Shown: piece by piece, positions 9,020 to 59,390 of the stretch
How the letters are laid out: each line of letters starts with the position of its first letter
Position numbering within the stretch: the first letter of the stretch is position 1
From: Urechis unicinctus
Taxonomy: Eukaryota > Annelida > Polychaeta > Xenopneusta > Urechidae
NCBI GenBank assembly: GCA_034190875.2
Contig: CM067348.1
Location: 33,457,848-33,521,847 of the forward strand
Reading direction: 5' to 3'
Length of the DNA stretch: 64,000 nt
The notes under the pieces: generated by a model
Databases searched by the model: none
The model's input: only the letters and a program-made list of their open reading frames with translations
What the model was told of the DNA's origin: nothing
Program-made: the position numbers and the translations under genes

Positions 9020-9465
9020 TCACGTATGACATGTCCACAGTCCATCACGCATGACAAGTAAACAGTCCATCACGCATGACAAGTAAACAGTCCATCACGC
9101 ATGACAAGTCCAGAGTCCATCACGCATGACATGTCCACAGTCCATCACGCATGACATGTCCACAGTCCATCACGCATGACATGTCCATAGTCCATCACGC
9201 ATGACAAGTACACAGTCTATCACACATGAGAAGTCCAGAGTCCATCACGCATGACATGTCCACAGTCCATCACGCATGACATGTCCATAGTCCATCACGC
9301 ATGACATGTCCATAGTCCATCACGCATGACAAGTACACAGTCTATCACACATGAGAAGTCCACAGTCCATCACGCATGACATGTCCACAGTCCATCACGC
9401 ATGACATGTCCATAGTCCACCATGCAATACTTTCAAAGTCCATCACGCATTACATGTCCACATGC
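9020..9465. repeat. 25-bp tandem minisatellite
   Basis: About 17 copies of a 25-base unit built from the words CACGCATGACA, GTCCACAG and TCCAT, with a few variant units (CACACATGAGA). Confidence 0.9.
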
Positions 9466-9544: not shown

Positions 9545-9915
9545 GTCCAGACGTCCAAGAATCTCCCTATCCTCCATCAAGCATGTCCTTCATTTGAACT
9601 CTCCCTTTCGTCTACCAAGTCTTTCCTTCGTCGAGGCCTCGCCATTTCGTCCACCAAGATTGTCCTTCGTCTAGGCCTCCCCCTTTTGTCCACCAAGCCT
9701 TTCATTTTGTCCAGGACTCTCCCCATCGCCCATCAAGTTTTTACCTTGTCTAGGTCTCTCTCTTTCGTCCACCATGATTGTCCTTCGTCTAGGCCTCTCC
9801 CTTTCGTCCACCAGGATTGTCCTTTGTCTAGGCCTCTCCCTTTCGTCCAGCAAGCTTGTCCCTTGTGAAGGTCTCTCCCTTAGCACACCAAGCTTGTCCC
9901 TTGTCTAGGATTCTC
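9545..9915. repeat. 39-bp tandem minisatellite
   Basis: About nine imperfect copies of a 39-base unit containing GTCTAGGCCTCTCCC and TTCGTCCACCA. The unit is a multiple of three, which keeps frames open on both strands and explains the Leu/Ser/Pro-rich and Arg-rich shadow ORFs here. Confidence 0.85.
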
Positions 9916-11688: not shown

Positions 11689-11948
11689 TGACTCTCGAGG
11701 GGCGATTTTTAAAATTCAACAACCAGCAATAACAGCGGCGATGGTAGATAAGCGTTTTAAGACTCGAGTGCCTGTAATATTGTCTGTACGAGCAGTCAGT
11801 TAGGAGGGACATTTCGAGAATTGTTTACCTGTGTTTGAGTTGGCATATACCAGCGGCTAGGGACGATGGGTGCTGTTGATTTAGTCTGAAAATAGCAGCG
11901 TCCATTGAAGAGTTGCGTTTCAGAACTGGAGTTGCTCTCATTGAATAT
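11689..11948 (+). repeat. Left part of 60-bp minisatellite split by the retrotransposon
   Basis: Contains AAGACTCGAGTGCCTGT and TTGTCTGTA, the core words of the 60-bp family seen at 21,492-22,290 and 40.4-45.5 kb. The array resumes directly after the 3' LTR, so the element inserted inside it. Confidence 0.7.
11945..11948. repeat. Target site duplication, left copy (ATAT)
   Basis: ATAT lies immediately before the 5' LTR and again at 21488-21491 after the 3' LTR. The diverged solo LTR at 60211 is also flanked by a 4-base duplication (GAAC), which independently fixes the LTR ends. Confidence 0.8.
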
Positions 11949-11951
11949 TGT

Positions 11952-11967
11952 GGTGACGTACGTCACC
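11952..11967. promoter_or_regulatory. CRE-like palindrome at LTR start
   Basis: GGTGACGTACGTCACC is a perfect 16-base palindrome with two TGACG half-sites, the core bound by CREB/ATF-type bZIP factors. Both LTRs carry it. The solo LTR at 60211 has a rearranged version. Binding is inferred only. Confidence 0.4.
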
Positions 11968-12263
11968 GCTGTGGTCCAATGGCTTTAACGTGACGGCGTT
12001 GCATTAAAAGCGTATGACACCTCTGAGGAGCTTGGCCCTTAACGTGTCAGCGCTACTAAAACACGTCCCCCGGAACCGCCCTGGCCTTTTAGGCGGCAAA
12101 GCAATATACAAGTGACTGGTCACTTGTACGGTCACTTGTAGCCGACCCGCCAAGGAGAAGAGAACTAGCCAGCTAGATAACCACGAAGAAGCTAGTAAAG
12201 GAACAGTGAAAGCAGCCAAGTAGAAGACACAGCAAGTAACCAACCGCCCTACGACAGCTAAAG

Positions 12264-12269
12264 GTAAGC
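12264..12269 (+). promoter_or_regulatory. Consensus 5' splice donor in LTR
   Basis: AAAG|GTAAGC sits 26 bases before the LTR end and matches the metazoan donor consensus. It is kept in both LTRs and in the diverged solo LTR (near 60514), where much of the surrounding sequence differs. It pairs logically with the acceptor at 18696-18697 to make an ORF3 message. Confidence 0.55.
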
Positions 12270-12290
12270 GGGCTTAGGAAATCACTATAT

Positions 12291-12306
12291 TGGTGTCAGA
12301 AGTGAT
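12291..12306 (+). promoter_or_regulatory. Primer binding site, tRNA-Leu-like
   Basis: TGGTGTCAGAAGTG begins one base after the LTR. From general knowledge of animal tRNA-Leu 3' ends, the complement reads TGGTGTCAGGAGTGG, so one mismatch in the first 14 bases. The same type of site is used by several marine invertebrate Ty3/gypsy elements. Confidence 0.65.
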
Positions 12307-12617: not shown

Positions 12618-13034
12618 ATGATGGCCTCCTGTGATGTGTCCTTCACGCGCGCGGCCCCTAACGCCCCTATCTCTGTCAATTATGCCCCGGCTAATATGCT
12701 TTGTTTAATACCGGGGGTGGGGGCTAAACTGGTTGCGGCTATTGTTGTGATCAGGGAGGAACAGGGCAATTTCACGGAGGTGTCTTTGAGGGCTTTGCTT
12801 CGGGGGAGCCTGTCATCGGCGGCGCTCGCGTTGGTGGATTCACGCCAAACCCCGCGCTGGGCGGCGCGGGACGTAACGATACACAGAGAGTGCCACCGCA
12901 AAACAGCAAGGCATGGGATAAGGGTTTTGGCGGCGGGATACAAGCACTCAGTGCTTAAGGCGGTTCGCGGGATGCGGGATTGCATGCGCCAGGTTGGACG
13001 GGTATGCGGAAGCGGGGTTCCACGATGGAACTAA
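12618..13034 (+). pseudogene. Gag N-terminal region with helix-hairpin-helix segment
   Basis: The first ATGs downstream of the primer site are at 12618 and 12621. The frame reads ISVNYAPANMLCLIPGVG then AKLVAAIVVIREEQG and NFTEVSLRALL. This is the pattern of a ComEA-type helix-hairpin-helix: a first helix, a PGVG hairpin, a second helix with xREExG, then a closing helix. HhH segments usually bind nucleic acid without sequence specificity, so an RNA or DNA contact role in the particle is likely but inferred. Codons after about residue 75 are Arg-rich and unremarkable. The frame stops at 13034, well before the capsid-like segment, with no single frame joining them. Confidence 0.55.
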
Positions 13035-13657
13035 CCCCGAGTGTCGGCGGTATCCAGGTCGGGGAGGAGTGGAGGAGTTGGCCGCGTGTGCAGTCTACGC
13101 CTGCCCCCATTCCTCGGCGGGTCGCGGGCCTGGAGTTGGACTTGGGGTCTTCCGGCCTTGCAGGTGTCGACGCAGTCTCGCCTCCCTCCCAGTCGGGGGA
13201 TGTCGGGGCTTGCGGCGACGCCTTGCTACATGGGGTCGGAGACTTCCGGGGGTACTACCGCCGTGACGTGCCTGCGGATGGGGGCGACGGACGTTATGCC
13301 GCGGCCCTGCCCCGCGTTCCTCCCGGTTTTGAGGGACACCCCCGTCCGCCTCAAGCTGCGGTTGTTAGCACTCCTTACCGCCATCCTGTAGCCAGCCCTA
13401 GGGGAATGTGGGGTAATGTTGTTTCCCCCGTAGGCTGCTTCCCACCCCCCGCTGAACCGACCATGGGATGCCTGTTCTATGGGGACTATGCGGTCGCCAA
13501 GGAGACGGTTGCCTGTCACACCTCCGACGGTACCATTTGTCGGGAGTGCGAGGGGTAATCCTGATCTCCATTATACTGGGCGTCCCGGGTCAAGGTTCCC
13601 GGCACCGGGTGGTTATGAGAGGCCTCGGGTAGCGGGGAACGCCTCGGGCCACTTTGA
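13035..13657 (+). pseudogene. Gag middle region, frame broken
   Basis: GC-rich Pro/Gly/Arg-rich sequence that is open in several frames. No one frame links the helix-hairpin-helix segment to the capsid-like segment, so one or more indels are likely. I cannot say which frame was translated. Confidence 0.4.
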
Positions 13658-14347
13658 ACAGTTGCCGCATTCGGTAACTGCGGCCCCCTACTCTGCATAC
13701 AGCGCCGTCCTGTCGCTGACCACCGGAATAACCAAGGTCCCTATGACAGCAGGGGATGGGACCCCGCCAAGGCCCTCCCTAGGGGCCTTTCATTTGATGG
13801 AGTCCGGGGGTGGAAGATTTTCCGGCAGCGTTTTGAGCGATATGCATTCGCTCGCGGCTGGTTTGAGGATCAGAAGAGCGAATGCCTATGCTGGGCTATG
13901 GTGGGAAAGGCGGCAGCGGTCCACTCCGCCACCATAGGGGATGATCTGGGTGTTCCCTTTGGTGTTGTGATGGATGAACTTGAGCACCGCTTTGGGTCTG
14001 GGGACTTGTACGAGGTCGCCCAGGCCAAGTTCAACCAGGCCACGCAGGCACCAGGGGAGGACCTTATGGAGTGGAGTGACAGAATCAGAAGTCTGTCACT
14101 CGAGGCATTGTCTGGCCTGCCCGACAATTACAGGGTGTGGCAGACGGTGTCTCGCTTCTGCCAGGGGCTGCAGGATCGAGATGCGGCGCACCACACCCTC
14201 TTGCGGCACCCGCAAACCCTCCGCGAAGCAATAGACCTGGTAAAGGACTTCCATCAACAATACCAGGCATGCTACGGAAAGCAGTCCCGGAGGCGGGGAA
14301 GGGGAGGGGGTACCCCCAAGGGTTTCAGCAGTAACTGGCCCTGGTGA
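13658..14347 (+). pseudogene. Gag capsid-like segment
   Basis: One frame is open from 13658 to a TGA at 14345. It carries a capsid-like pattern: SFDGVRGWKIFRQRFERYA near 13790, then DELEHRFG, EDLMEWSDRIRSL and TLREAIDLVKDFHQQYQ. These are features of retrotransposon Gag (Retrotrans_gag-like) helices that build the particle shell. A basic tail follows (QSRRRGRGGG). The nucleocapsid knuckle lies in a different frame just downstream, implying an indel around 14,320-14,345. Confidence 0.65.
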
Positions 14348-14348
14348 G

Positions 14349-14639
14349 GTGGAGGGCCTCGCGCGCCTGATGAGTCAGCTGCAGCGTGAGGTCCTGACCC
14401 TGACTAGGGCCATGCAAAAGCTGAAAGATCAGGGGTCACCCAAAGCTACTCAGAGTCCCTCCCGTTATAAATCTCCCAAAAGAGAAGCTGGGCCCTGTTT
14501 CCATTGTGGGAAACAGGGGCACTTTAAGAGGGAATGCCCAATGGCCCGGGAAGGGAGTCCCAGAACTCCTCAGGGAACAAAGTCGGGAAACGCCCAGGGG
14601 TCGGGCCAAGGGGCAGGTCGCCGATCCCCTCAACACTAG
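14349..14639 (+). CDS. Nucleocapsid with CCHC zinc knuckle
   Basis: A 96-residue frame with a coiled-coil-like opening (LMSQLQREVLTLTRAM) and one perfect knuckle, CFHCGKQGHFKREC (C-x2-C-x4-H-x4-C, nt 14496-14537). The tail is Ser/Gly-rich and ends at TAG 14637. Such knuckles bind the genomic RNA for packaging. The frame is open upstream of 14349, so its own start is not defined; it was presumably joined to the capsid segment. It overlaps the protease frame for about 100 bases. Confidence 0.8.
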   Translation: MEGLARLMSQLQREVLTLTRAMQKLKDQGSPKATQSPSRYKSPKREAGPCFHCGKQGHFKRECPMAREGSPRTPQGTKSGNAQGSGQGAGRRSPQH

Positions 14640-15397
14640 TGCCTCCGGTCTGTGTGGGTTGTGGGGCTGTAGGGGGTTGTGGTGATGCTGTAAAAGGTAG
14701 AGCCTGGGGTAAGGTTCTGGCGGGTAAGGGGCCTAGGATACAGGTTCATGGCGACCTGTGTACTTCCGCCGATGCACCAATGCCACCTCCGGTTCCTCCC
14801 CAGAATGTCAGCACTGCCGGTGAAGGTAGTGCGGCACGAAAGGGACAAGGGCTGAGAGAGCGAGCAAAAGGTAGCTCATCTGGCGCCACAGGAATGTCCA
14901 TGGCACCTCGTATACACCCTCTTACCCAAGTTAATCAAGCAAACTCGGCTCCTCAATCCATTGGGTCACCACAATCGACACCATTGGACAACTACAGGGG
15001 ACCTCATGATGCACAACGGGTTGGGGGACCGGTGACGGAGTTGGCCAGTAGCAGGGTAACCGATGAGGTGCCCAATGAAAGCGTATTGGTGTGCCAACTC
15101 CTATCCGCGTCTCAGTTTACCCTACCAGTGCAGATTGGTGGTATGACTGTAGATGCCGTTGTCTATACCGCTGCAGAAGCCACGATTATGTCTGACCGTG
15201 TTTTCCGCCAGCTAAACCTACAGCCGCGGAAGGTCAGGGATGTCAGGCTACTGACTGCAGGTGGAGACATGGCTATGGCCGGGTTCGTTGTGGGACCGGC
15301 GGAGTTGAATGTGGGCCATAAGTATATGTTGCACCTATCGCACAAGACCTGTTATTGGGATTTGACATCCTCGTCAACAAGTGGCAAGCTGTATTAG
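14534..15397 (+). pseudogene. Retropepsin-like protease region with altered active site
   Basis: After about 190 residues of Gly/Ser/Pro-rich linker, the frame reads LPVQIGGMTVDAVV then YTAAEATIM. In retropepsins this second stretch carries the catalytic D-T/S-G/A triad. Here the Asp position is Tyr (residue 211, codon at 15164). The flap-like and C-terminal parts follow (VRLLTAGGD, MAGFVVGPAELNVG). The frame leaves homology around 15,345. The DILV-type ending expected of gypsy proteases resumes in the RT frame, so an indel lies there. This copy is predicted to lack protease activity. Confidence 0.7.
14585..14635 (+). promoter_or_regulatory. Probable -1 ribosomal frameshift signal
   Basis: GGGAAAC at 14585-14591 is in phase G GGA AAC relative to the nucleocapsid frame. 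A -1 slip enters exactly the protease frame. Four bases later AGGGGTC (14596-14602) can pair with GATCCCCT (14623-14630) with one bulge, and inner GG/CC pairs extend the stem. GGGAAAC is an established slippery heptamer in retroviruses. The nucleocapsid stop lies just downstream, as expected. Confidence 0.6.
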
Positions 15398-16062
15398 ATA
15401 TGGCTAACGCAACCCTTGCCTTTGACAATCAAGTGGTCAATCTCAATATTGGGTGGGCAACAGACACCCTGTCCGCCGCACGAGTAGCCAAGCCAGTCAA
15501 GGTCCGTATGAGGCGCACCCCACGAGGATTCGCTGAGGAGGAAGAGGCTCATCTAAGAAAGATGTTGGATGCCGGCGTGATCCAAGAATCGACATCGGAA
15601 TGGGCCTCAGCCCCAGTGCTAGTACGGAAGAGGGATGGGACGGTACGTTGGTGTATAGACTATAGAGCATTGAACAATGTAACCACCAAGGACGTATTCC
15701 CCCTCCCACTAGTGGATGACTGCCTTGACACCCTAGTGGGCAACACATGGTTCTCCAAATTGGATGCTAATTCGGCATATTGGCAGATAGGAATCAAGAC
15801 GGAGGACCAGAAGAAAACTGCATTCATAACCAAATACGGCCTGTTTGAACACGTGAAGATGGGATTCGGGTTATGCAATGCCCCTGCCACATTCGCTAGG
15901 GTAATCATCTTGGTACTCCGGGGGCTCAATTGGAACACTGTCCTGGCTTTCCTGGATGACGTCCTGGTTCTCGGATCAAGCTTCGAACAACACCTACAGG
16001 CTCTGAGGGAGGTTCTAACTCGGTTCCGTCAGAATGGCCTGAAGCTGAAGCCGAAGAAATGA
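15355..16062 (+). pseudogene. Reverse transcriptase, fingers and palm
   Basis: Contains the conserved RT blocks in order: LRKMLDAGVIQESTSEWASA, RWCIDYRALN, FSKLDANSAYWQI (catalytic Asp 137), FGLCNAPATF and FLDDVLV (Asp 201 and 202). All three metal-binding aspartates are present. The enzyme copies the element RNA into DNA inside the particle. The track start is a TTG; the true polyprotein comes from upstream. A 5-base tandem repeat of AAATG near 16,056-16,065 creates the TGA at 16060 and shifts the thumb and RNase H into the next frame. Confidence 0.85.
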
Positions 16063-17066
16063 AATGCCTGTTCTTCCAAACAGAGGTAGAGTTCTTAGGG
16101 AGAATTGTCAACGGGGACAATATAAGAATGTCCGAGACGGATACAGCGGTGGTGGACAAGTGGCCGGAGCCCACCAAGGCGAAAGATGTGGAACGTTTCA
16201 TGGGGCTCGCCAATTACCACCGCTCCTTCATCAAAAACTTCTCCCTGTTGGCTGACCCACTCTACCAAGTAACAGGAAAACAAGGATTCAGATGGGAAAA
16301 AGAGCAGCGCGACACCTTTCAAGCCTTGAAGGAGGCTTTGACCTCTCCCCCTGTCTTAGCATTACCAAACAGGAGGGATGAGTTCATCCTTGACACTGAC
16401 GCGTCAGATGTGGCTGTGGGAGCAGAGCTGCTTCAAGTCCAGGACGGTGAGGAGAGGGTAGTTGCCTATGGCAGCTTCGCCCTCACTAAGGAGCAACGCA
16501 GGTACTGCACTACACGCAAGGAACTGCTGGCGGTTGTAAGGTTCACCCGGCAATTCAGGCATTACCTGCTGGGGAGCCCATTTGTGATACGAACAGACCA
16601 CGCGAGCCTGACATGGCTTCTCAACTTCAAAGAACCCCAGGGACAGCTGGCGCGGTGGATGGAAGAACTATCACAATACAACATGGTAGTTCGGAACCGT
16701 GCTGGCAAGAAACACGCCAATGCAGACGCCCTGTCCAGAATGCATCCACTACCAGGGCCATGCAACGCTTATGTGGCTGGGGTTGATCTAGAAGATTTGC
16801 CATGTCAGGGATGCAAATACTGTGCTCGTGCTGAGAGGGATTGGGGCAGATTCGAGCAAGAAGTGGACAACATCGTACCTCTGGCCACCCGAAAAATGGA
16901 AGAGGCTGCCCCGGAAGCGCGAGCTGAAGAAAGCGACCACGTGGCTCCCAACCTGGATGTGCTCCTTAGGGGGTGCCAGATAGAGAGGCACCCCACACAT
17001 CAACAGAAACCAGGGATCCGGTGTCTAAAGAAGAGGACCTTTTACCGGAAGGCTGGCCCTTTATAG
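16059..17066 (+). pseudogene. RT thumb, RNase H and start of integrase tether
   Basis: Reads FLGRIVNGDNIRM and FMGLANYHRSFIKNFS, the RT thumb of Ty3/gypsy. RNase H follows: FILDTDASDVAVGAELLQ, the catalytic Glu in CTTRKELLAVV, and RTDHASLTWLLNFKEPQGQL, ending at NADALSR. The RNase H acidic residues appear intact. A variable linker follows, with CPCxxC-type cysteines near 16,805 (CQGCKYC). Homology then leaves this frame near 17,000 and resumes in another. Confidence 0.85.
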
Positions 17067-17440
17067 AAGTGACTCGACACGGAGAGCAGGTAGAAGTCCG
17101 CAGTTGTAATGCAGTAACCGACGCGGACCCAGCTGCCTTTCAGAATCCATCCTGCTGGGGCTTTAGCACTGAGGAAGTAAGAGAGCAACAAGGAAAAGAT
17201 AAGGACCTTAGCGCCCTACTTCGATGGCTGAGCATTGCAGAGGAACCGGAGGAAGGTACCCTGTTCTCCTCAAGTCCTGCATCTAAGTAATACTGGATCA
17301 ACAAAGAAAGTATGTGCTTAATAGATGGGGTCTTGTACAAGGAAAGGAAGACTGTCCAGGAAAAGGACCTGGTGGTCCCCACCAGTCTGAAGGAAGATGT
17401 GCTCCATCTACACCATGACATTCCATCTGCGGGGCCACCA
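16973..17440 (+). pseudogene. Integrase N-terminal region with stop and frameshift
   Basis: Frame continues the polyprotein linker (VSKEEDLLPEGWP, EVREQQGKDKDLSALLRW) to a TAA at 17288. Beyond it the same frame reads GVLYKERKT and LHLHHDIPSAG, the start of the integrase HHCC zinc-binding domain. It then changes frame near 17,435, where a G-rich run occurs. The stop and the shift are separate lesions. Confidence 0.65.
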
Positions 17441-18668
17441 GGGGGTTGCACGGACCAAGGCCAAAGTAAAAGAGAGGTTCCATTGGTTTGGTTTGGCTCA
17501 GGATGTGGAAAACTATGTAGCATCCTGTAGCACGTGCAACCAAAACAAGAAGGCTACCCGCCAAGGGAAGGGCGCAATGCGAGAATACCAAGCAGGCTCG
17601 CCTATGGAGTGGGTACACCTCAATTTCCTTGGACCATTGCCGCGTACCTCAAGGGGGAACGAGTATGTGCTCATGATGGTTGACCAATTTACCAAATGGG
17701 TCGAGTGCATACCTCTCCCCTGTCAAACTGCCGAGGTAACAGCAAGAGCGGCAGTGAATGAGTTCTTCTCCAGGTTTGGATATCCTTTCCAAGTTTTCTC
17801 TGACCAGGGGAGAAACTTCGAGTCACGCCTCTTCACTGCATTGTGTGAAGCTCTCCACATCCATAAGGCACGCACGACGCCTTACAGACCATCTGCTAAT
17901 GGACAAGTGGAGAGATTCAATCGTACGTTAATGGACGCAGTACGCTGTTTCATTGGGAAGAACCAACACCAATGGGACATGCATTTGTCGCAGCTGGCCG
18001 GTGCACTCAGGGCTTCGGTTAATAGAAGCACAGGTTTTATGGCCAATAAACTCATGCTTGGGCGGGAAGTCAATGTACCGGCACACCTGATGTTCCCTCA
18101 TCATACAGGAGGAACAGTTGAGGAAGCGGATTACGTCGCCCAGCTAACGAGTGAGATAGGCCGTGCCCATGATGTTGCCCGGACTAAGCTCCAAACCTCG
18201 CTGCGTCGCATGAAACGTAATTACGATGTCCGCTTAATTGAAAGGTCGTATAAAAAAGGGGATGTGGTGTATATCCTAGATACGGCCAACTTGAAGGGGA
18301 AATGTCGGAAGCTGAGTCCCCCCTGGAAAGGACCCGCGGTCATCGTGAAGCGCATATCCGACTTTCTATTCAGAGTGCAACTAAAAAATGCCCTCTTCGT
18401 CGTCAACCACGACCGCATCAAGCCCTGCAAAGACCGAGACCTGCCAAGGTGGATTTCCAATTGGCAGAAACAACCGCCAGAGGGTCAAGAAGATGTCAAA
18501 GATGCCGAAGAGTTGTATTGCATTTGCCACCAACCTTGTCACGGGCGTTTCATGATTCAGTGTGACTTTTGTCGTGAATGGTACCACGGCACTTGCGTGA
18601 ACGTCACGGTGACAGATGCACTTAGTATAGATAAGTACCGGTGTGGGCGCTGTAAATCACGACATTAG
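17397..18668 (+). CDS. Integrase with C-terminal PHD finger
   Basis: The N-terminal zinc domain ends in CSTCNQNK. The catalytic core has VHLNFLGPLP, FSDQGRNFES (Asp 136) and NGQVERFNR (Glu 172). The Asp-to-Glu gap of 35 residues is canonical, but the first catalytic Asp is replaced by Asn 76. After the core a GPY/F-like region contains PPWKGPAVIVKRI. The last 50 residues (about 375-423) form a complete C4HC3 PHD finger: CIC, CDFC, WYHGTC and CGRC. Integrases insert the cDNA into chromosomes; chromoviruses carry a chromodomain in this place. PHD fingers often read histone H3 tails, so a targeting role is inferred. The frame ends at TAG 18666. Confidence 0.85.
   Translation: MCSIYTMTFHLRGHQGVARTKAKVKERFHWFGLAQDVENYVASCSTCNQNKKATRQGKGAMREYQAGSPMEWVHLNFLGPLPRTSRGNEYVLMMVDQFTKWVECIPLPCQTAEVTARAAVNEFFSRFGYPFQVFSDQGRNFESRLFTALCEALHIHKARTTPYRPSANGQVERFNRTLMDAVRCFIGKNQHQWDMHLSQLAGALRASVNRSTGFMANKLMLGREVNVPAHLMFPHHTGGTVEEADYVAQLTSEIGRAHDVARTKLQTSLRRMKRNYDVRLIERSYKKGDVVYILDTANLKGKCRKLSPPWKGPAVIVKRISDFLFRVQLKNALFVVNHDRIKPCKDRDLPRWISNWQKQPPEGQEDVKDAEELYCICHQPCHGRFMIQCDFCREWYHGTCVNVTVTDALSIDKYRCGRCKSRH
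18513..18665 (+). other. PHD finger domain at integrase C-terminus
   Basis: Zinc ligands are C-x-C, C-x2-C (CDFC), H-x2-C (HGTC) and C-x2-C (CGRC), the full C4HC3 set. The Trp before the His (EWYH) is the usual PHD core residue. It is fused in frame to the integrase with a Gln/Pro/Glu-rich linker. Confidence 0.85.
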
Positions 18669-18680
18669 CTATACACCAAT

Positions 18681-18697
18681 TGTTACTCTGATTTCAG
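18681..18697 (+). promoter_or_regulatory. Splice acceptor just before ORF3
   Basis: TGTTACTCTGATTTCAG gives a pyrimidine-rich tract and CAG two bases before the ATG at 18699 (G ATG GC). With the LTR donor at 12264 it would yield a short leader spliced onto ORF3, the strategy retroviruses use for env. Confidence 0.5.
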
Positions 18698-18698
18698 G

Positions 18699-21068
18699 AT
18701 GGCAACTCATAATAAGAGTGGAATTGTGGCCAGGGCAATGCAGGAGGGTCTAATACCTGCTAGGTCCCTGGTGGAGCAATTGATGATGTGCCCCAAAACA
18801 ACGGGGGCACAGCGGGTTGAAGCGTTTGTCCACCAGGTGACTTAAGCGAAAGCGAGAAAAGACCAGCAGTGGTTGCGGTTGGCAGCTAAGACAGCGCTGT
18901 CCCTGCAGCTCCAGAGCCGAGAGTGGATACACCGCAATGTATTCCCTATCGGTCTGCCTAGCAGGGGGCGTGTCCAAGCTCCGTTGCCAGCTGGACCAAG
19001 CAAGGACTACAGGCTCGCTTTAGACCCGTCCTTGCCGCATGTTTCGGCTAACGATGGCGCCAGTGACCCTGAGCGAACGTTGCAGGCGTCCTCAGGGCGG
19101 CCTGTAGCCAGCTCAGGGAGGGGCATGGGCAGCAGCCACCCTGACTCAGCAGGGCCAGGCTTAGTGCCCATGTTTGGGGCCTCTGGAAAAGGGTCACCCC
19201 TTGTTATGGGTGGCACTAGAGCAGAGGCTTCGACGTCTTCAATGGAGCTGGAACGTACAGGGGAATGCTCAGATTCCGAACCTGTATCCATCCTGGGTCA
19301 GCTGTTGGGTAGGGGGGAGGATTTCAATCTTCCAAGCTCTCCCCTTAGTAACCCTCCCCCTGCCACTGGTATTGGGTCTTCATGTTCACCACGTAGGCGG
19401 GTGCAATGTATTGAAGACCCAGGTGTCGCTGATGCTTTGGCTGGTCCTGATGTAAGACCCCCTTCCAAGTCCAAGCGGGCAGGTAAGAGAGTCCAAAGGG
19501 GAAGGAAGGCAAAGGCAGGTGATCGAAAACAGCCGGCTGCGCAGGCAACTGCAGCGCCAGCGCTGACAATCACCTTGCCTGTAAAGCGGCAAAAGGGGGG
19601 TGCAGGGTCATCCAAGTCGAGGAAGGCACACAAGCCCATGACAATCGGCAACGACCCCTACCCCCAATCAACAGCCAACTCACGACCCCTGGTGGTGCAG
19701 GGTGGGTCCCAGGGGGCTGTAAGCGAGACGCCCCGAGGGGACATGGGCGGCCACAAGGGGAAGTCCACACCTAGATGTCCCATTCCTGGGTGTGGGGATT
19801 CGTACGCGTCTCCAAAAACGCACAGCTTTACCAAACATGTCCCGGAGGTTTTTATTGAAGGCCTGGACCCCATGGATGTGACAAGGCAACGATTGTCTGT
19901 CCTCCATGTGATCGCTAACTATCTGCTGGGGCCGGGCCGAGACTTAAAATTCTTGGTCCACCTCGCAGAGGGGTTAGGTGGTTTTGGATGCCAAGGCCTG
20001 AGGGAACCGACGGGATTATTGAAGGAGTCAATGCGGGAGTTCTGTCGGGTCCACGAGGATCCAGTTCCTAATAGCTTCTGTCTTAAGCCCCCAAATTCGC
20101 CCGCGGTCCTCCTCCACTGGCAACCTCTGATGGCTCTGCTGTCCCGGCTCGGGCCCCGTGAGAGGGAGCTCGTCTGGGACTTGGGCCGTCGGCCTGCACA
20201 GTGTGGTAGGGTCGAGGGGAGCGGGGCGGGGCAGGGGCCTGCCGAACCGGAACCTCAGCTTCCTGTGGCCTTCGATTCCCACTTCCACATGGACAGGGCC
20301 CTGACTTCCCTGGGCCTATCACGGAAGTCTGGGCCGAGTAATTTGTTCATGGCTGCCAAGCCCCAGTCTGCCTTCGCTGTCGACGTTGGGGGTGCTGTGG
20401 CCAACTATTGCGACCCCGCCACTTACCCCAGTGTCAAGGAAATCATCCGCCTGGGGCAGCACAAAATACGGGTCGCGATTGGTCTTCACCCCAAGCATGC
20501 AGCGAAGTGCACATCGGACCAAATGCAGGTGATGTCCAACCTTCTCAAACGGTCCGAAGTTGTCGGTCTTGGGGAGGTTGGCATAGACCATTCAGTCCCC
20601 CCTGCTGAATGGGGGACACAGCAGCATGCCCTACACCACGTGCTGTCCCTCCTAGAGCCCCGGCATGTGCTGGTTTTGCACATCCGGGGAATGAAGGGAG
20701 ATGACGGCACAGAGGCATATTGCTGTGCCCTGTATCAGCTGCTTGGTCAGGTGCCCAGGGAGCAGCGGATTCACCTCCACTGTTTCTCGGGAACTGGGGA
20801 TGTGGTTAGCCGGTGGGCGTCGAAGTTTCCGAACGTCCATTTTGGGTTCACTCGGCTGGTGCGAGGTTTCAGTACCTGCCAGCTCGAGGCCCTGCGCTCC
20901 ATCCCCCTGGATCGCCTGTTGTTAGAGACAGATGCCCCCTATTTTAACTGCCCATCACCCAGCCATATAGGGGTGGTGGCGGCTTTGGTGGCGCGGGGAG
21001 TCGGCAAGGATCCAGTGGAGCTTATTAAAATCACTGCCCAGAATACTTGTCGACTCTACGAGATGTGA
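18699..21068 (+). pseudogene. ORF3: C2H2-like finger plus TatD-family nuclease (TATDN2-like), one internal stop
   Basis: Starts MATHNKSGIVARAMQEG at 18699. An in-frame TAA at 18843 interrupts it, after which 731 codons are open from about 18846 to TGA 21066. Numbering from 18873, residues 20-290 are Ser/Gly/Pro-rich with basic patches. A C-x4-C-x9-H-x4-H finger lies at 302-322. A conserved helical segment follows, then a TatD amidohydrolase-fold domain at 467-731. Its metal-site motifs are all present: DSHFHMD (His 470, 472), GLHP (539), GEVGID (Glu 568), LHIRG (His 603), LHCFSG (His 636) and ETDAPY (Asp 687). TatD enzymes are metal-dependent nucleases; TATDN2 homologues act on RNA and RNA:DNA hybrids. 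The position replaces env. There is no signal peptide or membrane helix, so it is not an envelope protein. Confidence 0.85.
19776..19841 (+). other. C2H2-like zinc finger within ORF3
   Basis: Reads RCPIPGCGDSYASPKTHSFT then KH. The ligands C302, C307, H317 and H322 are spaced 4, 9 and 4. Such a finger could bind nucleic acid or protein; no partner can be inferred. Confidence 0.5.
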
Positions 21069-21130: not shown

Positions 21131-21146
21131 TACGGTGGGGGGGGAG
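21131..21146 (+). promoter_or_regulatory. Polypurine tract
   Basis: TACGGTGGGGGGGGAG directly abuts the 3' LTR; the G-rich run is the expected primer for plus-strand DNA synthesis. Confidence 0.75.
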
Positions 21147-21487
21147 TGTGGTGACGTACGTCACCGCTGTGGTCCAATGGCTTTAACGTGACGGCGTTGC
21201 ATTAAAAGCGTATGACACCTCTGAGGAGCTTGGCCCTTAACGTGTCAGCGCTACTAAAACACGTCCCCCGGAACCGCCCTGGCCTTTTAGGCGGCAAAGC
21301 AATATACAAGTGACTGGTCACTTGTACGGTCACTTGTAACCGACCCGCCAAGGAGAAGAGAACTAGCCAGCTAGATAACCACGAAGAAGCTAGTAAAGGA
21401 ACAGTGAAAGCAGCCAAGTAGAAGACACAGCAAGTAACCAACCGCCCTACGACAGCTAAAGGTAAGCGGGCTTAGGAAATCACTATA
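21147..21487 (+). repeat. 3' LTR (341 bp)
   Basis: Same length and ends as the 5' LTR, with a single substitution (GTAACC instead of GTAGCC). ATAT follows at 21488-21491. Confidence 0.92.
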
Positions 21488-21491
21488 ATAT

Positions 21492-44262: not shown

Positions 44263-45510
44263 AGAATAAGAGATTAAGACTCGAGTGCCTATGATTGCAT
44301 CTCTATATACCAGCGGCCTGGAAACAAGGGCACCTTAAGACTTGAGTGCCAGTGGTTTTGTCTGTGTATAGAAGAAGCAAGCGAGGAAGGGCTTTTAAGA
44401 CTTGAGTGCCTGTGATTTTGTCGGTGTATAGAAGAAGCAAGCGAGGAGGGACTTTTAAGACTTGAGTGCCTGTGATTTTATCTGTACATAGAAGAGGCTT
44501 AGTAGGTGGGGCTTTTAGGACTTGAGTGCCTGTGATTTTGTCTGTACATAGAAGAGGCTTAGTAGGTGGGACTTTTAAGACTTGAGTGCCTGTGATTTTG
44601 TCTATTTATAGAAGAGGCAAGGGAGAAGGGGCTTTTAAAGACTCGAGTGCCTGTGATTTTGACTGTGTTTAGAAGTGGCAAGGGAGGAGTGGCTTTTAAG
44701 ACTCGAGTGCCTGTGATGTTGTCTGTGTATAGCAAAAGCCTGGGAGGAGGGGTTTTTAAGACTCGAGTGCCTGTGATTTTGTCTGTGTATAGAAGAGGCT
44801 TTGTAGGGGGGGGGGGGGGGCTTTTAAAGACTGGTTTTGTCTTTTTATGGAAGAGGCTTAAGAGGAGGGCTTTTTCAAACTCAAATGCCTATGATTTTCT
44901 ATGTATATAGAAGATCGTTTTAAGTCTTAAGTGTCTGTGCTTTGGTCCGTCTATAGAAGATTATTATTAGGAGAGACGTTTAAGACTTGAGTGCCTGTGA
45001 TTTTGTCTGTACATAGAAGAGGCTTAGAAGGAGGGGTTTTTAAGACTTGAATGCCTGTTATTTTGTCTGTGTATAGAAAAACCAAGGGAGGAGGGGCTTT
45101 TTAAGACTGGAGTGCATGTGGTTTTGTCTGTATATAGGAGAGGCAAGGGATGAGGTTCATTTTAAGACTAGAGTGCCTGTGATTTTGTCTGTGTATTGAA
45201 GAGGCAAGGGAAGAGGGCTTTTTAAAACTCAGTGCCTGTGATTTTTTATATGTATAGAAGAGGCTATGGAGGAGGGTCTTTTTAAGACTTGAGTGCAAGG
45301 GATTTTGTCTGTGTATAGAAGAGGCAAGGGAGGGGGGTCCTTTTAAGGCTGGAGTGCCTGTGATTTTGTCTGTTTATGGAAGAGGCAAGGGAGGAGGGGC
45401 TTTTCAAAACTCGAGTGCCTGTTATTTGGTCCGTCCATAGAAGAGGCAAGGGAGGAGGGGCTTTTTAAGACTCAAGTGCCAGTGATTTTGTCTGTCTATT
45501 GAATAGGGGA
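44263..45510 (+). repeat. 60-bp minisatellite, forward block (~20 copies)
   Basis: Several consecutive units are exactly 60 bases. The core is GACTTGAGTGCCTGTGATTT, then TTGTCTGTGTATAGAAGAGG and GGGAGGAGGGG. Orientation flips at about 44,262 relative to the block on its left. A G run lies at 44,806-44,820. Confidence 0.9.
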
Positions 45511-46537
45511 AGGGACTACTTATTAACACTCCCCATTAAAGCTGTATTTTGTTCCCTTCTTGCTCTCAACCATACATTGTGGTTGGATGGCAATTAACAC
45601 AAAGTCATTGGTTAGAGGTTGGTACCATTTGTTTATTTGACCAGTCTAAAGGTCGGTCACTGTGGGTCAGGTATTCATGATGTCTTGTGGTGTTAAGTGG
45701 CAGCACAGAAAATGGCTCATGCTTTTTATTCTCGCGCATGTTTACAATCAGATTAGAAGAATTATTCCACCTGTTTGTATTACCCTTCTGTGATTGATCG
45801 ATGTATATCTGGCAAATGTTGATTTTCTGTTAAAGTGCAGCCTAGCATAAGATGGAAGGTCTGAGTTAAGGGTTCTGGTCCCAAGCCATCCATACATAGG
45901 GAACCATGTTACCCCACACCCCAGGAGCAGACATTTGAGTCTTCCATCCACCTGACTGTAGTTGATCCCAGTGAACCAATGAGTGTTGATGACCCTCTGC
46001 CAGACACAGCCACAAGAGGTGAGAACCAGTAACAATTAACACTATATATGAGCTCACATTATCTGGTGTACTAATCAATTAACAGCATGGCCTTTTGTTG
46101 TTTTGTTGCATGAAATTTGAAACTAACCATCTATTGTACATAGCTTCATACAATGGCAGTGGCATAATGTATTATATTTTGATACTTTTCCCAGTTATCA
46201 AATGTACTAGTGTATCTGTTGTTGTGTGTGGCTGGGAAGACATACCAAGCCAAGGAAGAAGATGAAATGAATGTCTAGGCTAGGTGAACTATCCAACAAA
46301 CTGTGATATGGATGACAGCTCACCAGCTGGCGCTGTGGCATAACAGATGCTTCCTACCGTTGCGTTGACTGCCTCTTTAGAATCTGTCCCTGCTATGGCT
46401 GTACTGTAGACACCCAACAAACACAACCACTGCATCTGATTCAAGAGTGACAGGTGTTTATCAACATTAATTTGTTTTAAAAGTGCAGAAGTGATAACTG
46501 ACAGTTGTTTATCTTACCTGTGTTTTACTCTCTTCAG
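45511..46537 (+). other. Low-repeat DNA with a possible exon
   Basis: 45925-46018, between CCCCAG and GTGAGA, reads EQTFESSIHLTVVDPSEPMS and ends VDDPLPDTATR. It is open and exon-like but unrecognised, and it does not join the next candidate exon in phase. Confidence 0.3.
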
Positions 46538-51188: not shown

Positions 51189-54091
51189 GTACTCTACAGA
51201 TGACCCGAACAATCTTCAGTCGTTGGTGACTGATTGGCACCTGAGTGGGCGTAACCACAGTGTTTTCCTCTTGAAGAAAATGTTTGTTGCTATTTTGCTG
51301 TTACTTACTATAAATCCAGAAAATCTCCAAACATTACGTATGGACCCAGTCAGTGGGATGCTGTATGTGTTAATTGTGAGTAATGTTATCATCATTAAGA
51401 AATGTTTGGGGAATGTTTGTTTGACCAATGGCATATTGCTGTTGAATCTGCATTACTTCTGTGTGTTCAGGGGAATTCCTCTTTGTTGACCGTAACCAAT
51501 AGTGACGTGACGTGCTTCACCGCTACGGCCAGGATATCCATCTGCTTGATGTCACATACAACACCACTAAATGTGATGTTCCTTGTTTGTTTTGTGAATA
51601 CAAACTTTGGCTTCACTAATGTGGTGATGTTTGTGGTGGAGAGGCAGACAACAGCCGCCATAGAGGAAGCCATCAACTTATTGCCAACCCCATTGAATGG
51701 GACAAGGGCAGCACCCTAAATACTAATATGGATATGATTATTGGCATCATGGAATCCGTCATGGAAGCCCAGACACTCCATGTTGCATGGTGTTTTTATA
51801 GCTCTCATTTATAATATTAATTAAGCTGTTATTCTAGTTGAGAAATCTGCCACTTTGTATCATGTTAAACAGATACATTCGCCATTATGGGCATATAAAT
51901 CTTCCCAAATGTTTCTGTAAAGAAAAATCAAATAATATAATAATGGGATTTGGTTGGATTCTTGATAGGGGACTTTTTGGTGTTCCATCGATAATTTGCA
52001 AAGGAATGGGTTTGTGAGAACTCGCTCTTTGATGTGTGAGCATATAAATTTTCCATGGCAAGTACAATTTGTCATATATTATGCATGATAACTTCTCAAA
52101 TACATGTTCTCTGTAGCTTATGACATTTGTGTTTAGTTATATCTAACTCTTTGCCCCGAGGTGGTGTTGTAATGTTATGTAGAGCAATGTACTGGAGCCA
52201 GTTTCGTATTTGTTATAGTTGTGCATGGGAAAGCATGTGATGATACGTAGTAACTGCCTGCTGGCAAATCACATCCAATCACTTAGCATCATAAGCTCTG
52301 AGCCGAGTTTCTTGATTGCCTGGAATAGCAGTAGCCATTTCATGAGTTATTCCATTATCATAGATTCTTGGACGATGAGCTACGATCGACAATTTATTGG
52401 ATTTAGATTGTGTCTTTAAGAAGTATTTTCCCTGTTTCAGTAATTTAGAACATGTAACTAAGCATTTACCAATTTTTCTCTGTAAAAACTTTATTAAATT
52501 ACAGCTAAACAAGAGAGGTTGTTTGGACCGACTGTTACGGTATGGTACATTTCACTATCCATGACTTGTCTCAGGGGTATCAATAAAACTTTTTCAGTGA
52601 TACAAATTAAGTTGTAAACAATTATCTTGTCACAACTTTATGAATTTATGTCTTCTGCTTGGGGCGTTGCTTAAATGATAGGACTGTGGCTGTTATCACT
52701 GTGTACAGAGTGCCATGTACTGTGACTGTTATTTCTGTGTACAGAATGCCATGTACTGTGGCTGTTATCGCTGTGTACAGAGTGCCGTGTACTGTGACTG
52801 TTATCGCTGTGTACAGAGTGCCGTGTACTGTGACTGTTATCACTGTGTACAGAGTGCCATGTACTGTGACTGTTATCGCTGTGTACAGAATGCAGTGTAC
52901 TGGGGCTGTTATCGCTGTGTACAGAGTGCTGTGTACTGTGACTGTTATGGCTGTGTACAGAGTGCCGTGTACTGAGGCTGTTATCACTGTGTACAGAGTG
53001 TCTTGTACTGTGGCTGTTATCACTGTGTACAGAGTGCCATGTACTGTGACTGTTATCACTGTGTACAGAGTGCCGTGTACTGTGACTGTTATCGCTGTGT
53101 ACAGAGTGCCATGTACTGTGGCTGTTATCGCTGTGTAGAGAGTGCTGTGTACTGTGACTGTTATGGCTGTGTACTGAGGCTGTTATCGCTGTGTACAGAG
53201 TGCCGTGTACTGGGGCTGTTATGGCTGTGTACAGAGTGCCGTGTACTGGGGCTGTTATCGCTGTGTACAGAGTGCCGTGTACTGGGGCTGTAATCGCTGT
53301 GTACAGAGTGCCGTGTACTGTGGCTGTTATCGCTGTGTACAGAGTGCCGTGTACTGTGGCTGTTATCTCTGTGTACAGAATGCCATGTACTGTGGCTGTT
53401 ATTGCTGTGTACAGAGTGTCGTGTACTAGGGCTGTTATCGCTGTGTACAGAGTGCCGTGTACTTCTCTACGACTTTCACAGAGAGCTAGCCTGGGAGAGG
53501 TAGCTAAGCCATGATGAAAACGTGATTCAGGAGTTGGTTGAGTTCCAGGTGGATTTCTTGCCATGACTGAGGGATCAAGTCACTAATGGCTGAGGGATCA
53601 AGTCACTAAGTGGTTAATGTCCACTTACTGTACAATCTGGAGTATAGGACGTAAAATATTAGACAAAATTTCAATTTATTTAATCCAATCATGAATGGAT
53701 CATGGATAAATCAAAACGGATCTGACACTCACTGATGTCTACTTGATCATCAGGAGAAGACAACTGCCAGTTGAATCCAGCTAATTTCATCATGTTACCT
53801 GGACTAGGCCTACCATAACTTTGCTCTACTGAACCCATTTCTTATCCAATGATTTAGTAACAAAGCACATATATCATATCCTTGTATTTTACCCTGTTAT
53901 TGTATTTCTTTGCTCATTTTGTTACCTCTACAGAGATTGATGAAAGCCTACCTGAACGAGCTTGTCAGTCTCATCAATACAACAAATGGGATCGAGCACC
54001 AGCATCGAGAGATGGAATGGAATTATCTGTATGCCACCTCGGACACTTATCTGGTGGGACTGTTGAAGATTGTAATGGATTGCCAAAAGAA
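51189..54091 (+). pseudogene. MULE-transposase-like (SWIM/MULE family) sequence, broken
   Basis: Three exon-like pieces resemble the MULE-transposase-domain proteins common in marine invertebrate genomes. 51189-51283 reads YSTDDPNNLQSLVTDWH. 51476-51719 reads HRYGQDIHLLDVTYNTTK, then in another frame VCFVNTNFGFTNVVMFVVE and TTAAIEEAINLL. 53934-54091 reads INTTNGIEHQHREMEWNYL then VGLLKIVMDCQKK. The LLD-TYNTTK block holds the first catalytic Asp of MULE-type DDE transposases. In-frame TAG and TGA at 51500-51505 and a frame change near 51,590 indicate a pseudogene. No terminal inverted repeats were found. A 36-bp minisatellite fills the intron between the second and third pieces. Confidence 0.6.
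52675..53465. repeat. 36-bp tandem minisatellite, open on both strands
   Basis: About 22 units of CTGTTATCGCTGTGTACAGA and GTGCCGTGTACTGTG. Because 36 is a multiple of 3, long frames run on both strands as 12-residue repeats (AVIAVYRVPCTV; HSDNSHSTRHSV). I do not treat them as genes. Confidence 0.92.
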
Positions 54092-58384: not shown

Positions 58385-59390
58385 ATTTATTGTGGGCAAT
58401 CCAACATGGACATGTTATTTTATGTGCTTTTGTAAATCGTCGTTGTGGTCAATCCAACATGGTATATCATTGGCTAGTGAAACTTCTTATAGTGGGCAAT
58501 ACAACATGGATGTGGTATATTGATGGTAAACAAAAATGTATATGGTTTGTTGTGGGCAATCTAGCATGAATATAGTATATGTTGGGCAATCTAACATGAA
58601 TATGGTATATTGTGGGCAATCTAGAATGAATGTGATACATTGCGGGCAATCAATAATGGATATGGAATATTGATGGCAATAAAAAATGCATATGGTATAT
58701 TGCGGGCAATCCAACATGAATATGGTATATAATGGGAAATCAAACATGGACATGATTTATTGTGGGCAATCCATAATGGATATGGTATATCATGGGCAAT
58801 TCAGCATGGATATGATGTATTGTGGGCAATCCAACATGGATATGGTATATTGTGGGCATTACAACATGGATATGGTATATCATAGGCTCGGTGTGGTCAA
58901 TCCAACATGGTGAATCATAGGCTAGTGTAACTTCTTATAGTGGGCAATATAACATGAATATGGTTTATTGTGGGCAATACATGATAGATGTGGTATATTG
59001 TGGGCACTCCATCATGGAGATGGTATATTGTGGGCAATCCAGCAAGGATTTGGTATATTGTGGGCAATCTAACATTGACCTGGTTTGTTGGGGGCAATCC
59101 ATAATGGATTTGGTATATTATGGGCAATCCAACATAGACATGATGTATTGTAGGCAATCCATAATGGATTTGGTATATTATGGGCACTCCAACATGGACA
59201 TGGTTTGGTCCATAATGCATTTGGTATACTATGGGCAATCCAACATGGACATGATTTATTGTGGGCAATCCATAATGGATTTGGTATATTGTGGGCAACC
59301 CAAAATGGGCATGGTTTATTGTGGCCAATCCATAATGGATTTGGTATATTATGGGCAATCCATAATGGACCACTTACACCAAGAAGATCG
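58385..59390 (-). repeat. ~31-bp minisatellite, orientation 2
   Basis: About 28 units of GTGGGCAATCCAACATGGAC and ATGGTATATT, the reverse complement of the array at 50505-50930. Confidence 0.9.

What the first reader, a model, noticed from the sequence alone, without database searches (positions are those of the whole stretch)
18699..21068. An LTR retrotransposon carrying a TatD-family nuclease as its third ORF
Seen: a 731-codon open frame between the integrase and the polypurine tract, inside two near-identical LTRs. It has every TatD metal-site motif (DSHFHMD, GLHP, GEVGID, LHIRG, LHCFSG, ETDAPY). Known: TatD enzymes are metal-dependent nucleases, and TATDN2 homologues act on RNA and RNA:DNA hybrids. 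Inference: the element has captured a nuclease that may process its own RNA:DNA intermediates, trim cDNA ends or counter host nucleic-acid defence. Families of TATDN2-like genes annotated in invertebrate genomes could partly be such ORFs. I am not aware of a description of this architecture.
Basis: partly seen in the sequence, partly recalled or inferred. Interest (0 to 1): 0.92.

Follow-up and report, generated by a model that had tools for sequence, protein, structure and literature searches.

The report
Jumping gene carrying a TatD nuclease
A family of retrovirus-like jumping genes, probably widespread in marine invertebrates, carries an extra nuclease gene of the TatD type where retroviruses keep their envelope gene, which suggests the elements use it to cut nucleic acids during their own life cycle.

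The parts
11949..12289 (+). 5' LTR (TGTGGTG...TCACTATA), 341 bp
   Evidence: 340/341 identical to the 3' LTR
11945..11948 (.). target-site duplication, left copy (ATAT; right copy 21488-21491)
   Evidence: 4-bp TSD in 11 of the 13 copies with both LTR ends complete, this one included
12260..12269 (+). 5' splice-site-like AAAG|GTAAGC near the 3' end of the LTR
   Evidence: same string in 19 of the 21 copies scanned; function inferred
12291..12302 (+). primer-binding site candidate TGGTGTCAGAAG
   Evidence: primer tRNA not identified
12618..14540 (+). gag region: helix-hairpin-helix stretch at 12618-12773 and zinc knuckle at about 14517; frames broken in this copy
   Evidence: HHH_3 4.8e-7 and zf-CCHC 1.4e-5 in the open gag frame of copy L027
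14534..15397 (+). aspartic protease frame
   Evidence: PF13650 1.3e-5 (26.2 bits, cut-off 24.3), PF13975 4.1e-6 just under its cut-off
15355..16062 (+). reverse transcriptase frame (about 478 bp missing relative to other copies)
   Evidence: PF00078 1.3e-24
16059..17066 (+). RNase H frame, frame-shifted relative to RT in this copy
   Evidence: PF17917 3.4e-34
17397..18668 (+). integrase: H2C2 finger, rve core, C-terminal PHD finger (18519-18653), TAG stop
18678..18698 (+). 3' splice-site-like AATTGTTACTCTGATTTCAG|G directly before the ORF3 ATG
   Evidence: TGTTACTCTGATTTCAG|GATG found by the pattern in 18 of 21 copies; function inferred
18699..21068 (+). ORF3; TAA at codon 49 in this copy (18843-18845), then a 731-codon frame from TTG 18873
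19776..19838 (+). C2H2-like finger C302-x4-C307-x9-H317-x4-H322, followed by a helical domain (to about residue 440)
   Evidence: all four residues in 55 of 58 aligned proteins; pLDDT by block of ten 87-97 except 72 at 371-380
20271..21059 (+). TatD nuclease domain; ligands H470, H472, E568, H603, H636, D687
21134..21146 (+). polypurine tract GGTGGGGGGGGAG
21147..21487 (+). 3' LTR

Best explanation
This is a young copy of a Ty3/Gypsy-type LTR retrotransposon whose lineage long ago acquired a TatD nuclease domain, fused behind a basic linker, a C2H2-like finger and a helical domain, as a third ORF in the position where retroviruses carry env. ORF3 is most likely made from a spliced subgenomic mRNA that joins a donor in the LTR leader to an acceptor just before its ATG. 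The protein most likely works as a nucleic-acid-bound, metal-dependent nuclease on the element's own replication or chromatin intermediates. My preferred substrate is the RNA strand of RNA:DNA hybrids (R-loops over the element, or hybrid left by RNase H), or free RNA/DNA 3' ends. Shown: anatomy, conservation, recurrence in this genome, an intact metal site, purifying selection. Inferred: linkage in other genomes, splicing, catalysis, substrate and benefit. About 0.95 for 'a conserved element-encoded TatD ORF', about 0.7 for 'catalytically active in intact copies' (lowered from 0.75 after the ligand count), about 0.35 for the hybrid substrate.
For: All 20 fetched top TatD loci have this LTR downstream of the TatD domain; 9 have the integrase upstream, 10 are the short form, and 1 (L018) keeps pieces of protease and RT only. 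LTR pairs differ by 3 or fewer substitutions in 14 of 16 proper pairs (319-340 aligned sites, gaps left out). ORF3 or TatD lies downstream of 18 of 19 integrase loci at 95% or more identity. dN/dS for the TatD domain is 0.34 (0.24-0.54, 21 copies) and for integrase 0.21 (0.12-0.38, 9 copies). All six ligands stand in 21 of 21 genomic copies and 53 of 58 aligned proteins. One clade of 60 ORF3-type TatD domains (SH-aLRT 100) stands apart from the TATDN2 group. Five TatD contigs equal PHD-pol contigs in exact length; 1000 shifted controls gave a mean of 0.25 and a maximum of 3. TatD and integrase distances of the six pairs correlate, r 0.75, reached by 34 of 720 permutations. The fold is confirmed. 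Human TATDN2 is reported as an RNase acting on R-loop RNA (passages of PMC10707325 and PMC12709183).
Against: No biochemical or transcript data. 5 of 58 aligned proteins have lost one or two metal ligands, among them P0009, a cluster of 182 member sequences, so some amplified relatives may be catalytically dead. No spliced junction was found in the genome (one 2-mismatch hit, and the control also gave one). Copies were picked by TatD score, which favours intact TatD and lowers dN/dS. Within the short form alone TatD dN/dS is 0.68 (0.29-2.13), not distinguishable from neutral. TATDN1 and TATDN3 were not in the tree, so 'sister of TATDN2' is not established by it. Contig-length identity is indirect: 9450 equals two different pol entries, which cannot both be on one contig of that size. 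The order inside the window/9450/11268 group differs between the TatD and integrase trees, with weak support.
Confidence: 0.6

Rival explanations
1. ORF3 is a counter-defence factor: its nuclease removes RNA from the nascent-transcript/DNA hybrids or small-RNA complexes through which the host germ line silences the element.
For: The non-autonomous form gave up RT and integrase but kept ORF3, as expected of a function that helps the element's own locus or RNA in cis. tatdn2 is a germ-cell R-loop factor in medaka (PMC12709183, passages).
Against: No small-RNA or silencing data. Retention in the short form could be chance, and within that form constraint on TatD is not demonstrable.
Confidence: 0.25
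2. ORF3 is a replication factor: it trims cDNA or RNA 3' ends, removes primer or leftover template RNA, or resolves flaps before integration.
For: E. coli TatD is a 3'-5' exonuclease on ssDNA and RNA (PMC12709183 introduction, passages). ORF3 appears to co-descend with the integrase.
Against: The short form lost RT and integrase but kept ORF3; if ORF3 worked in trans with pol it could have been lost too. The element has its own RNase H.
Confidence: 0.3
3. ORF3 is mainly a nucleic-acid-binding or packaging protein, and catalysis is dispensable.
For: C2H2-like finger (55 of 58), basic linker and helical domain. Five of 58 aligned proteins, one of them a 182-member cluster, lack one or two metal ligands.
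Against: Fifty-three of 58 proteins and 21 of 21 genomic copies keep all six ligands, hard to explain without catalysis in most lineages.
Confidence: 0.15
4. A one-off insertion of a host TatD gene into one element copy.
For: None found.
Against: 20 of 20 fetched loci, 18 of 19 young integrase loci, recurrence outside this genome.
Confidence: 0.01

Closest known systems
Bdelloid rotifer LTR retrotransposons (Vesta, Juno) with enzymatic ORF3s: DEDDy exonuclease, GDSL esterase (PMC5408684; outline with abstract and found passages seen)
   Same: LTR element, third ORF after pol, non-envelope enzyme including a nuclease, said to be expressed from spliced messages; the paper suggests a role in RNA 3'-end processing.
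   Different: Nuclease is DEDDy, not TatD ('TatD' occurs 0 times in the text); other host group; that paper reports no significant departure from neutrality, whereas here TatD dN/dS is 0.34; here one clade spans several phyla and an RT-less derivative keeps the ORF.
TATDN2 (animal TatD-domain protein)
   Same: TatD domain in a long protein; best scoring animal paralogue for the single query (83-99 bits for TATDN2-group rows, 145 for the two-domain P0082; against 18.5 bits for TATDN3 and no TATDN1 row at E 0.01). The length filter excludes free-standing TATDN1 and TATDN3, so this is not a fair contest.
   Different: ORF3s form a separate clade, carry the C2H2-like finger and helical domain, and in this genome are multicopy and LTR-flanked.
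Retroviral and errantiviral env (recalled)
   Same: Position 3' of pol and splice-like signals.
   Different: No envelope family matched; only TatD_DNase found.
Bacterial TatD / YcfH (1yix, 2gzx, 1xwy)
   Different: 21-24% identity in the structural alignment; free-standing chains of about 260 aa.

Membership tests
LTR retrotransposon, Ty3/Gypsy type | Two LTRs with target-site duplication | tested here: met
   (4-bp TSD in 11 of 13)
LTR retrotransposon, Ty3/Gypsy type | PR-RT-RNaseH-IN domain order | tested here: met
LTR retrotransposon, Ty3/Gypsy type | RT phylogeny inside the Ty3/Gypsy group | not tested
   no reference RT set was built; placement rests on domain order and Pfam models
TatD nuclease family | Profile match over the whole domain above the curated cut-off | tested here: met
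   111.6 bits, cut-off 27, profile 1-252 of 253
TatD nuclease family | Metal-binding residues HxH, E, H, H, D | tested here: met
   window and 21 of 21 genomic copies; 53 of 58 aligned proteins; which residues bind metal is recalled from TatD structures
TatD nuclease family | TatD TIM-barrel fold | tested here: met
TatD nuclease family | Nuclease activity | not testable with these tools
   needs purified protein
TATDN2 subfamily | Groups with TATDN2 to the exclusion of TATDN1 and TATDN3 | tested here: inconclusive
   one search has the TATDN2 group and two bacterial rows only; ORF3s form their own clade
Bdelloid-type enzymatic ORF3 | Non-envelope enzyme ORF 3' of pol in an LTR element | tested here: met
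   (enzyme by domain, activity untested)
Bdelloid-type enzymatic ORF3 | DEDDy exonuclease or GDSL esterase domain | tested here: not met
   only TatD_DNase in ORF3 and in 20 of 20 aligned members
Env-bearing endogenous retrovirus or errantivirus | Envelope glycoprotein ORF | tested here: inconclusive
   no envelope family; transmembrane prediction not run

The most novel reading that the evidence does not exclude
A single ancient retrotransposon lineage captured a TATDN2-like nuclease, has kept it under selection across several animal phyla, and uses it as an element-encoded RNA:DNA-hybrid nuclease against R-loop or small-RNA-guided silencing in the germ line. ORF3 then acts in cis, which would explain why RT/integrase-less derivatives still carry it, and it would be a retrotransposon-borne counter-defence enzyme of a kind for which my searches found no description.
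Probability: 0.22. Interest if true: 0.88.

Novelty: new variant of a known kind. Interest (0 to 1): 0.74.

Why it matters
Accessory enzymes in retrotransposons are, as far as I recall, rarely seen to persist. Here one nuclease has apparently travelled with one pol lineage across molluscs, Lingula and sea urchins and is under purifying selection in the genome examined, so its use to the element becomes testable. It may also explain a set of 'uncharacterized TatD' genes in marine invertebrate annotations as transposon ORFs, and offers natural experiments: derivatives that dropped RT and integrase but kept the nuclease, and relatives that multiplied after losing metal ligands.

Tried and rejected
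Viral contigs: three scans found no relative. Prokaryote genome contigs gave three contigs, probably host contamination in symbiont assemblies, with more distant integrases (33-42%). None matched ORF3 or the four other TatD proteins I compared by tblastn, but L044 ends 1.1 kb after its integrase, so absence there means little. L043 has a finger-bearing ORF after its integrase, but similarity to the ORF3 finger is weak (E 0.036 among those ORFs), so I do not claim homology. A search with the N-terminal half (only the 7999 candidates sharing most words were scored) gave 12 rows, the query among them; 10 carry TatD and the other 2 (94-95% identical to the query) look like truncated copies, so I found no TatD-less precursor.

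Spliced retrocopy: none. Read-through of the integrase TAG (ORF3 is in the same frame) was considered as the expression route. The short form lacks the integrase yet keeps the acceptor and, in three copies, an open ORF3, so splicing is preferred, not proven. Weak TatD hits of about 50 bits (three read, L029-L031, of several dozen) are ORF3 pieces cut inside TatD and joined to other repeat sequence; they are not counted as elements. The 'gag' row (0.60, 0.29-1.40, 18 copies) was read in a frame with 1-3 stops in each of the 17 copies other than the window's, so it does not measure gag and is rejected.

Rows left out before counts. One search used 90 of the 106 integrase rows (left out: 11 rows of other integrases at 35-38% identity, four more pieces of loci already counted, and one locus at 52%), 57 of the 77 ORF3 rows and 24 TatD positions of the 150 rows; I checked the omitted ORF3 rows by eye and none lies at a missed locus. 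One search used 13 of the 16 proper LTR pairs (L013, L021 and L022 have incomplete ends); L020 is two elements and not a pair. Codon counts dropped copies with 80% coverage or less. Two of 78 domains fell out of the tree (no match or too short).

VIA-align rows cover 335-731 for the most part; the finger plus helical domain was not searched alone, so nothing is claimed about its fold. Second AlphaFold job not used. Papers: of ten searches, five paired TatD or TATDN2 with transposon or mollusc terms and showed, in the listings, no TatD ORF in a retrotransposon; some searches asked for PHD integrases or extra ORFs, for TATDN2. One search listed 5 of 5,062 papers and one search listed 20 of 27. 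The library lacks most subscription journals, and Repbase was not available.

Full report
What is in the window. The window is a stretch of an unnamed 1.19-Gb genome in 926 contigs. Between 11949 and 21487 lies an LTR element of 9,539 bp. The LTRs are 341 bp and differ at one site. A 4-bp duplication flanks 11 of 13 copies compared, this one included. A primer-binding-site candidate follows the 5' LTR and a polypurine tract precedes the 3' LTR. Pfam finds protease, RT, RNase H, and an integrase with H2C2, rve and a C-terminal PHD finger. In the open gag frame of copy L027 gag begins with a helix-hairpin-helix (HHH_3, 4.8e-7) and ends with a zinc knuckle.

Not a one-off. A genome search for the TatD profile gave 150 scored hits of 223 candidates, a lower bound. 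I read 20 loci that hold 21 of the top 22 hits, the other being the window's own. All 20 have this LTR downstream of TatD; 9 have the family integrase upstream, 10 are a short form, and one (L018) is degenerate, with protease and RT pieces only. Because those were chosen by TatD score I ran the converse test: integrase loci against ORF3 and TatD hits. At 95% or more identity 18 of 19 have ORF3 or TatD downstream; at 90-95%, 10 of 20; at 80-90%, 3 of 21; below 80%, 2 of 4; 33 of 64 in all. The hit lists are truncated, so I read four of the 31 misses. All four continue from integrase into ORF3 sequence: two far into ORF3 and the first part of TatD, one broken after 183 bp by other sequence, one cut after 206 bp. 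The other 27 were not read. LTR pairs of 14 of 16 proper pairs differ at 3 or fewer sites, so the family has moved recently.

Selection. Pooled pairwise dN/dS (Nei-Gojobori, codon bootstrap) is 0.34 (0.24-0.54) for TatD in 21 copies, 0.50 (0.36-0.74) for the rest of ORF3 in 20, 0.21 (0.12-0.38) for integrase in 9 and 0.81 (0.36-2.35) for RNase H in 9 (few changes). In full-form copies alone TatD is 0.34 (0.19-0.60) and in short-form copies alone 0.68 (0.29-2.13), not distinguishable from 1. Ascertainment by TatD score works in favour of low values, and pairs are not independent.

A derivative without pol. Ten of the 20 fetched loci are a form that keeps LTR, gag, part of the protease and ORF3 but has no RT, RNase H or integrase of the family; the nine with both LTRs span 6,559-6,676 bp. 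The tenth, L012, has no 5' LTR in the fetched stretch and a different element's pol upstream (25-30% identity). In L017 and L015 the right edge of the missing part lies just 3' of the integrase stop, 5' of the putative splice acceptor. Three of the ten (L012, L015, L017) have open 799-aa ORF3 frames. Pol can evidently be borrowed; ORF3 was not dropped.

Expression. The ORF3 ATG is preceded by TGTTACTCTGATTTCAG|G; my pattern found it in 18 of 21 copies. AAAG|GTAAGC stands near the end of the LTR in 19 of 21. This suggests an env-like spliced mRNA. A genome search for the joined ends found nothing above control, which is expected if spliced RNA lacks the primer-binding site, so splicing stays inferred.

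Beyond this genome. A search with the TatD part found 136 long proteins at E below 1e-5, 120 listed; named ones come from Pecten, Argopecten, Dreissena, Pinctada, Crassostrea, Nucella, Lingula, sea urchins and others. Nineteen were aligned with ORF3 in full: most share the N-terminal motif, the finger and TatD, while P0002, P0069 and P0081 lack the N-terminal part and P0069 the finger too. In a tree of 76 domains, 60 ORF3-type rows, the window among them, form one clade (SH-aLRT 100), separate from 14 rows of the TATDN2 group, rooted on two bacterial rows; TATDN1 and TATDN3 are not included. A search with the integrase of one copy (763 proteins, 120 listed) shows PHD-bearing pol proteins, some named from Pinctada, Nucella, Haliotis, Ostrea and Lytechinus. 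The listings give the longest contig of each protein. Among 120 TatD and 119 pol entries, five TatD contigs (16046, 9450, 11268, 9947, 9881 bases) equal a pol contig exactly; shifting the lengths by 1-500 gave on average 0.25 matches and never more than 3 in 1000 trials. One length (9450) matches two pol entries, which cannot both sit on one contig of that size. Four of these TatDs are in the tree and fall in different sub-clades, including one (P0050) in the deep branch that also holds urchin and Pinctada proteins. For the window plus five pairs, TatD and integrase distances correlate (r 0.75, 34 of 720 permutations as high); both trees separate the pair 9881 and 9947, while the order among window, 9450 and 11268 differs with weak support. 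The simplest reading is one old acquisition followed by co-descent.

Mechanism. [quoted passage not shown] E. coli TatD is a 3'-5' exonuclease on ssDNA and RNA (passages of PMC10707325 and PMC12709183; the primary TATDN2 paper was not read). From this and the intact metal site I infer a nuclease acting on hybrids or 3' ends. Keeping ORF3 without pol leans towards a role in cis or at the chromatin level, but does not prove it.

Known relatives. The closest precedent I found is the set of ORF3s in bdelloid rotifer LTR elements, some encoding DEDDy exonucleases (PMC5408684, abstract and passages). That makes this a new variant: another nuclease family, other hosts, selection visible, a single multi-phylum clade. 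The open-access searches made showed no TatD ORF in a retrotransposon. The giant squid genome paper shows a 'TATDN2' gene among non-Hox genes inside the Hox cluster beside POGK and ZMYM1 (PMC6962438, one passage), a possible instance that I could not test.

Noticed in passing
L009, L010, L012, L014-L017, L021-L023 (whole loci): A roughly 6.6-kb non-autonomous form keeps LTRs, gag and ORF3 but lacks RT, RNase H and integrase; it has multiplied recently (nine LTR pairs 97.6-100% identical, gaps left out).
   Followed up: partly
P0009, P0028, P0051, P0054, P0081 (alignment A2): Five ORF3 homologues have lost one or two TatD metal ligands; P0009 stands for 182 member sequences, so a possibly inactive lineage has multiplied.
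   Followed up: partly
window 12618-12773; L027:271-2325; P0208: Gag begins with a helix-hairpin-helix (HHH_3) domain, also in a pol polyprotein from another source; unusual for a gag as far as I recall.
   Followed up: partly
L029, L030, L031 and several dozen weaker TatD hits: A dispersed repeat contains ORF3 cut inside TatD and joined to other sequence, with a DIRS-like RNase H fragment nearby in L029 and L030 (that label is recalled).
   Followed up: partly
P0132, P0142, P0148, P0189: Pol proteins of this kind are deposited as Sedimenticola and Candidatus Thiodiazotropha proteins; probably bivalve host contigs in symbiont assemblies.
   Followed up: no
L041:735-4481: One ORF3 copy is interrupted after 183 bp by sequence with Helitron-like reading frames (label recalled, not searched).
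   Followed up: no
C1:1.1-6.2 Mb of the genome: The integrase copies found on contig C1 (61 Mb long) all crowd within 1.1-6.2 Mb; two read there have ORF3s that lose similarity within TatD.
   Followed up: partly
window 9020-9462, 9562-9909, 44335-45515, 52683-53463, 58488-59369, 62353-63637: Dense minisatellites (25-, 39-, 60-, 36-, 30-, 32-bp units); the 297-aa minus-strand ORF at 52671-53564 overlaps one such array.
   Followed up: no
P0045: A Pecten 'cytochrome P450' gene model carries a TatD domain (PF01026 plus PF00067), perhaps an annotation fusion across an element.
   Followed up: no
P0003, P0012: Some contigs are only slightly longer than ORF3 itself (891 aa on 2817 bases, 802 aa on 2651 bases), as a subgenomic mRNA would be; nature of the contigs not known.
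   Followed up: no
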